A DNA stretch of 64,000 nt. Origin: Mycobacterium intracellulare ATCC 13950 (GTDB taxonomy: Bacteria; Actinomycetota; Actinomycetes; Mycobacteriales; Mycobacteriaceae). The DNA lies in assembly GCF_000277125.1 (NCBI RefSeq), contig NC_016946.1, forward strand, positions 2,480,001-2,544,000. The letters are read 5' to 3'. Shown here piece after piece: positions 56,333 through 58,410 of the stretch. Position numbers and translations under genes: made by a program. Below the pieces are notes generated by a model. It was given only the letters and a program-made list of their open reading frames with translations. It was not told the DNA's origin and did no database searches. Numbering within the stretch: the stretch's first letter is position 1; each line of letters starts with the position of its first letter.

Positions 56333-57060
56333 TGCGAGTCCTGCTGCTCGGCGGCACCGGCGAGGCGCGCGCGCTGGCGAAAACCCTGCACCCCCGCGTC
56401 GACGTCATCAGCTCCCTGGCGGGCCGGGTGCCGGACCCGGCGCTGCCCGTCGGCCCCGTGCGCATCGGCGGCTTCGGCGGCGTGGACGGCCTGCGGCGCT
56501 GGCTGCGCGACGAGGGCATCGACGCCGTCGTCGACGCCACCCACCCGTTCGCGGCCACCATGACGGCGCACGCCGCCACCGCATGCGGCCAATTGCGGAT
56601 ACCTCATCTGATCCTGGCGCGCCCGGCCTGGGATCCCGGCGAGGCACTTGTCGTCGGGTCGGACAGGCATGCGGCGCAAACGGTTGCCCGGCAGGGCTAT
56701 TCACGCATCTTCCTCACCACCGGTCGCTCCGGCGTCCACGCCTTCGCCGGCAGCGACGCGTGGTTTTTGATCCGGGCGGTCACCGAACCCGACAGCGCCT
56801 CGCTGCCGCGCCATCACCGGCTGGTGCTCTCGCGTGGCCCGTACCGCTACGACGAGGAAGTCGCGCTGTTGCGCGAGCACCGCATCGACGCGCTCGTCAC
56901 CAAGAACAGCGGCGGGCAGATGACGCGGGCCAAACTGGATGCCGCCGCTGCGCTCGAGGTGCCGGTGGTGATGGTGGCGCGCCCGCCGCTACCGGAGGGC
57001 GTCACCACCGTCGGCACCGTGGCCGACGCCGCGGAATGGGTTGGCGCGCTAGCCGGTTAG
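56332..57060 (+). CDS. cobK: Precorrin-6A reductase
   Basis: 242 residues: MRVLLLGGTGEARALA (NADPH binding), DATHPFAATMTAHAA (substrate loop) and TKNSGGQMTRAKLDAA. Reduces the precorrin-6A macrocycle. Ends 10-12 bases inside the 3' end of the convergent sigC. Confidence 0.95.
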   Translation: MRVLLLGGTGEARALAKTLHPRVDVISSLAGRVPDPALPVGPVRIGGFGGVDGLRRWLRDEGIDAVVDATHPFAATMTAHAATACGQLRIPHLILARPAWDPGEALVVGSDRHAAQTVARQGYSRIFLTTGRSGVHAFAGSDAWFLIRAVTEPDSASLPRHHRLVLSRGPYRYDEEVALLREHRIDALVTKNSGGQMTRAKLDAAAALEVPVVMVARPPLPEGVTTVGTVADAAEWVGALAG

Positions 57061-57603
57061 GTCGCTGCGCTCGCCGTCGGCCAGCAGCGCATCGCGGGCG
57101 CGCGCGACCCGGGAGCGGATGGTGCCCACCGGGCAACCGCACACCGCGGCGGCGTCGGCGTAAGGCAGCCCGAGCAACTGGGTGAGCAAAAGCGCTTCCC
57201 GCTGTTCGGGATTGAGGCCGGCGATCATCGTCGTAACCTCAACGAGGTCTTCGAACCCGCGGGCGTTGCGGTCGCCGCGCACCACGTGTTCGGGATCGGC
57301 GCCCAGCGCGGCACGCGGCCGCGACTGCAGCTGGCGGATGTGATCGGCCACGACCCGGCGCGCGATGGACAGCAGCCACGTCCGGGCGCTCGAGCGTCCG
57401 GAGAACCGCTCGATGGCGCCGATGGCGCGCAGGAAAGTCTCTTGGGCCAGATCGTCGGCGTTGCCGGCATCGGAGAGGTAGGCGACGAACCGCCACACGT
57501 CTTGCTGGGTGGCTTTGATGAACGCCTCGAGCGCTCGCGCGTTCCCGCGCGCGGCGGACAAAGCGAGCTCGGTTACCGCCTCGTCGTCGCTCGGCGCGAT
57601 CAT
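57049..57603 (-). CDS. sigC: ECF sigma factor SigC
   Basis: 184 residues from ATG at 57603, very close to Rv2069 in sequence. Region 2 (KATQQDVWRFVAYLSDAGNA, AQETFLRAIGAIERFSGRSS) and region 4 helix-turn-helix (LPYADAAAVCGCPVGTIRSR) are complete. An SD (AAGGTGG) lies about six bases upstream of this ATG, supporting separate translation. However, no stop separates it from the upstream membrane-protein frame, so a fused product is also possible. SigC is linked to virulence and, in reported work I recall, copper acquisition in M. tuberculosis. Confidence 0.94.
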   Translation of the reverse strand: MIAPSDDEAVTELALSAARGNARALEAFIKATQQDVWRFVAYLSDAGNADDLAQETFLRAIGAIERFSGRSSARTWLLSIARRVVADHIRQLQSRPRAALGADPEHVVRGDRNARGFEDLVEVTTMIAGLNPEQREALLLTQLLGLPYADAAAVCGCPVGTIRSRVARARDALLADGERSDLTG

Positions 57604-58410
57604 GCTCAACCACCTTAGTTGCGCGGGTTTTCCGATCCTACGACGGGTCGTCGTAGAGGGCGCGGCGTGGTCGGGGGCGGCGTGGTTGATCGGCCGCAGG
57701 TGCCCGCGCCGCCGACCGCTCGACGGGCCGGCCGCCGAGGCGGGATAGTCGGCGTCGACCGCGCCATCCGAGCCGTGCCGCCGGTGCGAGCCCACGCGCT
57801 CGCGCGCCACCAACAACGCGAATGCCAGGCCCAACAACAGCGGCATGTGGCTGGCGATCCGGGTGGCCGTGACCTGTCCGTCGAAGGCGTCGACAATCAC
57901 ATAACCAAGCAGCGCAACGGAATACACGCCGGTGATCGCCGCCACGCCCGACGCGGAGGCGGGCCAGACGCCGGCGGCGACCATCGCCAGGCCCAACGCC
58001 AACAACCACGCCGTCGACTCGTGCATCAGGTGCTCGCCCGACATCGCGCCGTGCATGTGACCGGACACCATGCCGAAATCGACGCCACTGATCTGGGCCG
58101 CGGCGATCGCCACCTGGAACAGGCCCACCGCGATCAAACCCCAGCGCCGGTAGTGCGACCGCAACCAGCGCATCCACCTCGGGTGTCCGGAGGCTTGGTC
58201 GTCGATGCTGGCCATGATCTTGTCGACCAGGTCGGGTCCCTCGCCGGGCGCCACCGAGGCGAACCGACGGGTCTGCGCCGCCGCCCCGATAAGCCAGGAA
58301 CGGCAACTGCGGCACGATTCAAGGTGGGCGTCGACCTGTTGCGCGAGCACCTGGGGTCGCTCGCCATCCAATCGAGCCGACAGCGCTTCACGCGCAACGT
58401 CACACCGCAT
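57604..58410 (-). CDS. Zinc-finger anti-sigma-like membrane protein, in frame with SigC and lacking its own stop
   Basis: From ATG at 58410 the frame encodes an anti-sigma zinc-finger (ZAS) domain: MRCDVAREALSARLDGE followed by HLESCRSC, the H-X3-C-X2-C motif. Four membrane segments follow (for example WGLIAVGLFQVAIAAAQI and TAWLLALGLAMVAAGVW). The first loop is His/Met-rich (GHMHGAMSGEHLMHESTAW), possibly metal-binding. A basic, His-rich cytoplasmic tail then continues directly into SigC with no stop: the combined frame 58410-57049 is 453 residues. Anti-sigma genes normally lie downstream of their sigma gene with their own stop. The coding end is given here as the base before the SigC ATG. 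Confidence 0.75.

What the first reader, a model, noticed from the sequence alone, without database searches (positions are those of the whole stretch)
57049..58410. Membrane zinc-finger anti-sigma-like protein fused in frame to SigC
The frame from 58410 to 57049 has no stop and encodes a ZAS domain, four membrane helices, a His/Met-rich loop and then all of SigC. SigC keeps its own SD and ATG, so the locus could make both a membrane-tethered SigC and a free SigC. In H37Rv, as I recall, sigC has no adjacent anti-sigma gene and is next to blaC. The metal-like loop and reported copper links of SigC suggest a sensor.
Basis: partly seen in the sequence, partly recalled or inferred. Interest (0 to 1): 0.85.

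Follow-up and report, generated by a model that had tools for sequence, protein, structure and literature searches.

The report
Anti-sigma factor fused to SigC
In this Mycobacterium avium-complex-type genome a membrane brake protein and SigC, the gene switch it should restrain, are read as one protein, and the DNA coding for the joint also carries control signals for making SigC alone; the fusion is already in print, the nested control is the part worth testing.

Summary
One open frame (58410-57049, minus strand, 453 aa) carries a ZAS zinc finger, a DUF2275 four-helix membrane domain and all of SigC. It is not chance: 100 of 396 genus genomes and 68 of 80 named loci share it, and at least 21 linker-length changes all keep frame. 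The fusion is already in print for MAC (PMC7563442) and for ECF group 36 (PMC8999054).

New anatomy: the linker-coding DNA holds a 19-bp palindrome, probably the BlaI operator, and a box before the SigC ATG that reads as an SD or a -10. The palindrome also precedes sigC where the anti-sigma gene is separate or lost. Another conserved promoter precedes the fused start. So a membrane fusion and free SigC are both likely products. The loop's methionines are not conserved; H127, E131 and H188 are invariant (41 of 41 rows). Copper sensing is plausible from neighbours of the sister system (copper ATPase in 9 of 9 long fast-grower loci) and from published SigC work, but not shown. The partner is a sister paralogue of the copper-locus type.

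The parts
58443..58447 (-). CTTTG, -35-like element of the fused gene's own promoter
   Evidence: Present 37 (77 rows) or 38 (4 rows) nt before the fused start in 81 of 81 fused rows
58417..58422 (-). AACGAT, -10-like element of the fused gene; A at -11 and T at -7 from the ATG, so the mRNA may be leaderless
   Evidence: A-11 and T-7 in 80 of 81 fused rows; promoter reading is inference
57049..58410 (-). Fused frame: ZAS, DUF2275 membrane domain, linker, SigC (453 aa plus stop)
   Evidence: conserved in relatives
58300..58404 (-). zf-HC2/ZAS domain, residues 3-37; C3, H29, C33, C36
   Evidence: Pfam; H29, C33, C36 in 41 of 41 and C3 in 40 of 41 aligned relatives
57706..58245 (-). DUF2275 domain, residues 56-235, with four predicted membrane helices (first begins at residue 77)
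   Evidence: Pfam, AlphaFold
58018..58032 (-). H127 and E131 near the start of the second membrane helix
   Evidence: 41 of 41 aligned relatives; metal-site role is inference
57847..57849 (-). H188 at the start of the fourth membrane helix
   Evidence: 41 of 41; metal-site role is inference
57604..57696 (-). Linker, residues 239-269; runs on from the HLRPIN motif, after which separate mycobacterial relatives end, mostly in SAA and stop
   Evidence: low pLDDT, 30-38 per block over 221-270
57638..57656 (-). Palindrome CTACGAC-N5-GTCGTAG inside the linker codons, probable BlaI operator
   Evidence: Exact inner arms in 80 of 81 fused rows, 52 nt before the SigC start in all but L134 (49 nt); similar sites before blaI and before a probable ATP-synthase gene cluster in the same genome
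57610..57617 (-). TAAGGTGG before the SigC start: AGGTGG (57610-57615) as SD, or TAAGGT (57612-57617) as -10 box
   Evidence: AGGTGG in 72 of 81 fused rows; strict TANNNT in 42 of 81, A-13 and T-9 in 81 of 81
57052..57603 (-). SigC (184 aa) with its own ATG at 57603
   Evidence: NCBIfam PRK09649; 86-92% identical over the matched parts to solved M. tuberculosis SigC domains 2o7g and 2o8x

Best explanation
A sigma gene nested in frame at the end of its own anti-sigma gene, giving two products. (1) From a conserved promoter at 58447-58417, probably leaderless, the cell makes a membrane protein: inside, a ZAS domain that binds SigC; then a four-helix DUF2275 sensor; then a loose linker carrying SigC on the same, inner side. 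It holds SigC inactive, both its own copy and, by the same ZAS, free copies. (2) From a second promoter within the linker codons, under a BlaI operator, free SigC is made. Copper (or a state that depends on it) at the outer-face H127/E131/H188 site keeps the brake on; its loss opens the ZAS and SigC turns on copper-acquisition genes. Shown here: the frame, domains, conservation, conserved DNA elements, frame-keeping indels. Inferred: ZAS-SigC binding, that both products exist, both promoters, BlaI binding, copper as the signal and its site.
For: Open fusion in 100 of 396 genus genomes (counted by hand from its rows) and 68 of 80 named loci. Nine linker lengths (22-32 codons), at least 21 changes on a quick tree among 81 fused rows, all in frame; in the 11 separate-gene rows the phase varies (6 in phase, 4 and 1 in the other two). 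Palindrome in 80 of 81 fused rows, in 10 of 11 separate-gene rows and before sigC in anti-sigma-less species, M. leprae and M. lepromatosis included. Elements before the fused start in 80-81 of 81. sigC is listed in the BlaI regulon (PMC8265638, passages); two start sites are mapped upstream of M. tuberculosis sigC (PMC7924339, passage). In fast growers the sister sigC adjoins a copper-type ATPase in 9 of 9 long loci. SigC prevents copper starvation in M. tuberculosis (PMC7924339, abstract and passages); the C. glutamicum SigC regulon is activated by copper deprivation (PMC7337898, passage). The window's genome gave no second anti-sigma gene of this family at E 0.001.
Against: No protein, RNA or binding data for a species with the fusion. 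AlphaFold pTM 0.37: no confident ZAS-SigC docking. Codon-position pattern in the linker is weak and absent in part of the spacer after the palindrome. In M. tuberculosis only short SigC is seen (PMC2897130), though the adjacent partner is absent there by report. The frame is lost in M. lepraemurium (L070), the partner is in pieces in G167, and it is absent beside SigC in several species. Palindrome-like sites with up to 2 mismatches are no commoner than the reversed pattern (199 against 585), and the site before blaI is such a match; I saw no paper that prints the BlaI motif. A scan with a recalled SigC consensus found nothing before the fused gene.
Confidence: 0.47

Rival explanations
1. Proteolytic release: only the fused protein matters; on signal it is cut in the membrane or linker and SigC is set free, as proposed for fused ECF sigma factors such as IutY. 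The internal start signals are a relic.
For: The review PMC8999054 files fused ECF36 members under proteolysis (passages); the linker 215-270 is disordered.
Against: Palindrome and the A/T of the box are kept in 80-81 of 81 fused rows and AGGTGG in 72, more than a relic should be. I looked for no cleavage site or protease.
Confidence: 0.21
2. The same fused brake, but the signal is not copper: DUF2275 senses respiration, haem or envelope state, and BlaI adds a beta-lactam or cell-wall input.
For: BlaI-type palindrome at sigC; C. glutamicum SigC is thought to answer defects of the aa3 oxidase (PMC7337898, passage); CtaG-type genes in 6 of 9 fast-grower loci.
Against: Copper-type ATPase beside the sister system in 9 of 9 long loci; induced M. 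tuberculosis SigC raises ctpB and the nrp operon (PMC7924339).
Confidence: 0.19
3. Incidental fusion: the anti-sigma stop was lost, the frame ran on, and the long protein does nothing special; SigC is made only from its internal start.
For: In the in-phase separate-gene relatives the stop lies only 14-21 codons before sigC; weak codon-position signal; one or two origins cannot be told apart (AU p 0.285).
Against: At least 21 linker-length changes, all in frame, while the phase drifts in separate-gene relatives.
Confidence: 0.13

Closest known systems
ECF36 members with an N-terminal DUF2275 extension (review PMC8999054, passages; table example KLO31890.1, Mycolicibacter heraklionensis)
   Same: Same architecture: N-terminal anti-sigma part with membrane helices and DUF2275, then the sigma factor. 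The window's protein is of this kind.
   Different: The passages read do not mention an operator or internal start in the linker, or two products.
MAC SigC fused to an Rv0093c-like protein (PMC7563442, passage, citing Manganelli 2014)
   Same: The same object, apparently in the same complex.
   Different: That paper names the partner Rv0093c; here it falls in a sister clade (type B) to the copper-locus type A. Copies elsewhere in relatives that belong to type A on that tree are 37-42% identical to it. Rv0093c itself was not held.
Putative RscA (anti-SigC) in M. tuberculosis and the M. mucogenicum clade (PMC6917791, passages)
   Same: A proposed anti-SigC gene, near sigC in some species; I take it to be the type A family here (inference).
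   Different: A separate gene.
IutY of Pseudomonas putida (ECF243) and SCO4117 of Streptomyces coelicolor (ECF52), as described in PMC8999054 (passages)
   Same: One chain holding sigma and membrane-bound anti-sigma parts.
   Different: Anti-sigma part at the C-terminus there, at the N-terminus here.
SigC of Corynebacterium glutamicum (cg0309; PMC7337898, passages)
   Same: Same gene name; its regulon is activated by copper deprivation. In other families of the order a homologous anti-sigma gene lies beside the SigC-like gene in 10 of 14 genomes, 9 of them divergent.
   Different: No fusion mentioned; the C. glutamicum genome was not examined here.

Membership tests
ECF36 / SigC | SigC-type sigma domains | tested here: met
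   NCBIfam PRK09649 over cut-off (355.5 against 219 bits); M. tuberculosis SigC domains are the top solved structures by sequence, and its sigma-2 domain the top by fold
ECF36 N-terminal fusion subgroup | N-terminal extension with 3-4 membrane helices and DUF2275 | tested here: met
   description from PMC8999054 (passage)
ZAS anti-sigma factors | H-x3-C-x2-C motif with an upstream Cys (motif recalled) | tested here: met
   zf-HC2 hit; residues in 40-41 of 41
ZAS anti-sigma factors | Binds and inhibits its sigma factor | not testable with these tools
   AlphaFold did not place the parts with confidence (pTM 0.37)
Type A (copper-locus) anti-sigma factors, taken to include Rv0093c | Clusters with copper-locus anti-sigma genes and has the copper ATPase near | tested here: not met
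   Falls in the sister clade, type B 100/100, type A 80/82 support; no homologue of the copper ATPase or CtaG gene in the window. Rv0093c was not held; its place in type A is inference
BlaI regulon | BlaI-type palindrome before the gene, and blaI in the genome | tested here: met
   the motif's identity rests on its place before blaI and a probable Rv1303, not on a printed motif
BlaI regulon | BlaI binds the site | not testable with these tools
   M. tuberculosis sigC is listed as a regulon member in PMC8265638 (passages; primary paper not held)
Copper-sensing regulators | Binds copper and responds to it | not testable with these tools
   Only conserved residues and gene context

The most novel reading that the evidence does not exclude
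A sigma-factor gene nested in frame inside its anti-sigma gene, with one stretch of DNA serving at once as protein linker, BlaI operator and sigma promoter. The cell thereby sets the ratio of membrane-tethered to free SigC by two inputs: copper at the membrane, and BlaI at the linker. Loss of the tethered form in the M. leprae line and others would explain why SigC there looks like an orphan without an anti-sigma factor.
Probability: 0.42. Interest if true: 0.68.

Novelty: already known. Interest (0 to 1): 0.48.

Why it matters
SigC is the copper-starvation sigma factor of M. [quoted passage not shown] In about a quarter of the genus genomes searched (100 of 396) the candidate is joined to SigC, so the pairing is hard to doubt, and invariant residues name a testable sensor site. 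If the nested control works as read, it is a compact case of coding DNA that doubles as operator and promoter, and it warns annotators that the roughly 450-aa 'SigC' entries in databases may have two products.

Tried and rejected
Rejected: Mycolicibacter lacking an internal SigC start. It looked so because of an alignment offset; one search shows an ATG a few codons upstream. Rejected: L026 as fused; its order is sigC then anti-sigma, so it was dropped, as was L074 (its N-terminal piece is inverted in the contig), leaving 81 of 83 non-duplicate rows called fused. In one search one linker was misparsed (22 changes); corrected (21). Rejected: the loop Met residues as conserved ligands; M143, inside helix two, is kept in 34 of 41 and was not pursued.

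In print or not: searches, and the passages read, gave no paper on an operator or promoter inside the fusion's linker; most subscription papers are not held (Sala 2009, Chang 2012 and Manganelli 2014 are known to me here from reference lists only).

Full report
What is there. The minus-strand frame 58410-57049 is open and encodes 453 residues (coordinates rechecked). Pfam finds zf-HC2 at residues 3-37 and DUF2275 at 56-235; NCBIfam finds SigC at 270-453, well over its cut-off. AlphaFold on a 56-row alignment gives a confident ZAS region, four long membrane-type helices, a disordered linker (215-270) and two good sigma domains, but pTM is 0.37, so the placing of the parts relative to each other is not predicted. 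The sigma domains match the solved M. tuberculosis SigC domains 2o7g and 2o8x. Neighbours are a divergent PPE-PPW gene upstream (58586-60238) and tetrapyrrole-methylase (cobalamin-type) genes downstream.

Is it more than chance? In one genome an in-phase open linker of about 30 codons is not remarkable. Across species it is. Of 396 genus genomes, 261 had a match at E 1e-25 or better, and 100 had the whole 1-453 span in one frame without a stop (counted by hand; the row list was cut off, but it is ordered by E-value, so full-length rows come first). Six more full-span matches contain stops (G118, G344, G095, G141, G403, G207); read directly, a stop falls at the natural end of the anti-sigma gene, 14-21 codons before sigC, and in three of them (G118, G344, G207) a second one close to sigC. 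Of 80 named loci kept (125 were found), 68 carry the full open fusion; the other 12 are L070, L074, L090, L116, L118, L126, L127, L129 (contig edge), L131, L132, L133 and L137. The protein search found 399 relatives and listed 120; those cover 96-100% of the query.

The linker is a translated control region. Separate mycobacterial relatives end shortly after a motif HL(R/W/Y), mostly in SAA and stop; fused proteins run on from the same motif. What follows in DNA is a palindrome, CTACGAC-N5-GTCGTAG, then a box, then the SigC start. The inner arms are exact in 80 of 81 fused rows (L041 differs by one base). The palindrome also stands before sigC in 10 of 11 separate-gene rows (L143 lacks it; L142 differs by one base), at 28-54 nt, and in the anti-sigma-less L090, M. 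lepromatosis L116, M. leprae L118, L126, L127, L129 and L200-L203 (L204 and L205 are the contigs of L127 and L126); L206, at a contig edge, lacks it. In none of the 9 long fast-grower loci was it found within 140 nt. So it belongs to sigC, not to the fusion. The box reads AGGTGG in 72 of 81 fused rows and strict TANNNT in 42 of 81, with A-13 and T-9 in 81 of 81: SD and -10 overlap, the SD is the better kept, and sequence alone cannot decide. In L132 and L146 the box is TAGACT 7 nt before the start without AGGTGG, which favours a -10 there; in L201 it is altered.

The palindrome as BlaI operator. In the window's genome a perfect match to CTACGAC-N5-GTCGTA occurs at two places, the SigC linker and one inside another open frame. 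A one-mismatch site lies before a gene that I recognise from memory as the Rv1303-like gene of the ATP-synthase cluster, and a two-mismatch site before blaI itself. Sites with up to two mismatches are not enriched (199 against 585 for the reversed pattern), so the blaI site counts only for its position. Literature: sigC and atpH are listed in the BlaI regulon (PMC8265638, passages); BlaI binds the Rv1303 promoter (PMC12565901, passages). I saw no paper that prints the motif, and binding at the MAC site is untested.

A promoter for the fusion. Before the fused start, CTTTG lies at 37 nt (77 rows) or 38 nt (4 rows) in 81 of 81 fused rows, and A-11/T-7 in 80 of 81, as expected if transcription begins at the ATG. 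Together with the internal elements this predicts two products. Two start sites are mapped upstream of M. tuberculosis sigC (PMC7924339, passage), and there only the short protein was detected, against an earlier report of a longer one (PMC2897130, passages); that species lacks the adjacent partner by report, so it does not test the fusion.

Is the fused protein itself under selection? Linker lengths are 22, 23, 24, 25, 27, 28, 29, 30 and 32 codons, needing at least 21 changes on a quick tree, all in frame. Rows were chosen as fused, so frame-breakers must be counted apart. Among the loci read I found one in the large fused clade, M. lepraemurium L070, plus the partner in pieces in G167 (not in the tree) and the inverted piece in L074. 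In the separate-gene species the phase is free: of 11 rows 6 are in phase, 4 and 1 in the other two (5, 4 and 1 without L143), and sister rows L139 and L145 differ. Codon-position diversity is highest at third positions in the variable part of the linker, but not in the spacer after the palindrome of one group, so this test is weak. On the tree fusion needs two changes, but one origin is not rejected (AU p 0.285 on 65 rows).

Relatives and history. Support is 100/100 for B and 80/82 for A. The tblastn search found a homologue of the L151 copper-type ATPase beside sigC in 9 of 9 long fast-grower loci, L151 itself included, and of its CtaG-type gene in 6 of 9; the ATPases of four loci pass NCBIfam's copper-translocating model. 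The window's genome gave only its fused copy, and its best match to that ATPase is 52% identical and lies elsewhere. In other families of the order, of 14 genomes with a SigC match at E below 1e-30, 10 have a homologous anti-sigma gene beside it, 9 divergent and 1 in tandem; the other 4 were not examined. PMC7563442 says MAC sigC is fused with Rv0093c; these trees make the fused copy a sister paralogue of the copper-locus type, with the caveat that Rv0093c itself was not held.

Sensor. In 41 aligned proteins (15 of the 81 fused, 10 separate, 10 fast-grower type, 6 of other families) H29, C33, C36, H127, E131 and H188 are identical in all; H120 in 34; the methionines M114, M119, M123, M129 and M189 in 19, 8, 14, 6 and 4; M143, inside helix two, in 34. 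With the N-terminus inside, H127/E131 and H188 fall at the outer ends of helices two and four (inference). Two His and one Glu suit a metal site. Copper is the best guess from SigC biology (PMC7924339; PMC7337898) and type-A neighbours, but no tool here tests it.

Verdict. A real, conserved, already reported fusion, with a nested operator and internal start that I did not find reported in the held literature. I rate the fusion as known and the two-input, two-product reading as the part worth testing.

Noticed in passing
window about 58481-58510; same region in many fused loci: A second conserved block (GGTCGGTT ... GTTTAGTTCCC) some 50-100 nt before the fused start in many fused species, of unknown meaning; it may belong to the divergent PPE gene.
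   Followed up: no
L198 (G098), 6235-6996: A fused-type anti-sigma gene with the linker motif but no SigC match in the 14 kb read; SigC seems lost and the brake kept.
   Followed up: partly
L201 (G167), 1318-1970: Anti-sigma gene in pieces upstream of a SigC match with its palindrome; described only.
   Followed up: partly
L192 and L200 (G381); L195 and L203 (G261): Both a type-A set (anti-sigma, copper-type ATPase, SigC-like gene 59-60% identical) and a second SigC of the slow-grower type without a partner beside it in one genome.
   Followed up: partly
G174:C1:1186027-1187406 and 1246079-1247359: Two fused-type matches in one genome about 60 kb apart, the second covering residues 1-418 only.
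   Followed up: no
L176 (G000:C1:4862147-4862165): A perfect copy of the palindrome inside another open frame, with no obvious promoter role.
   Followed up: no
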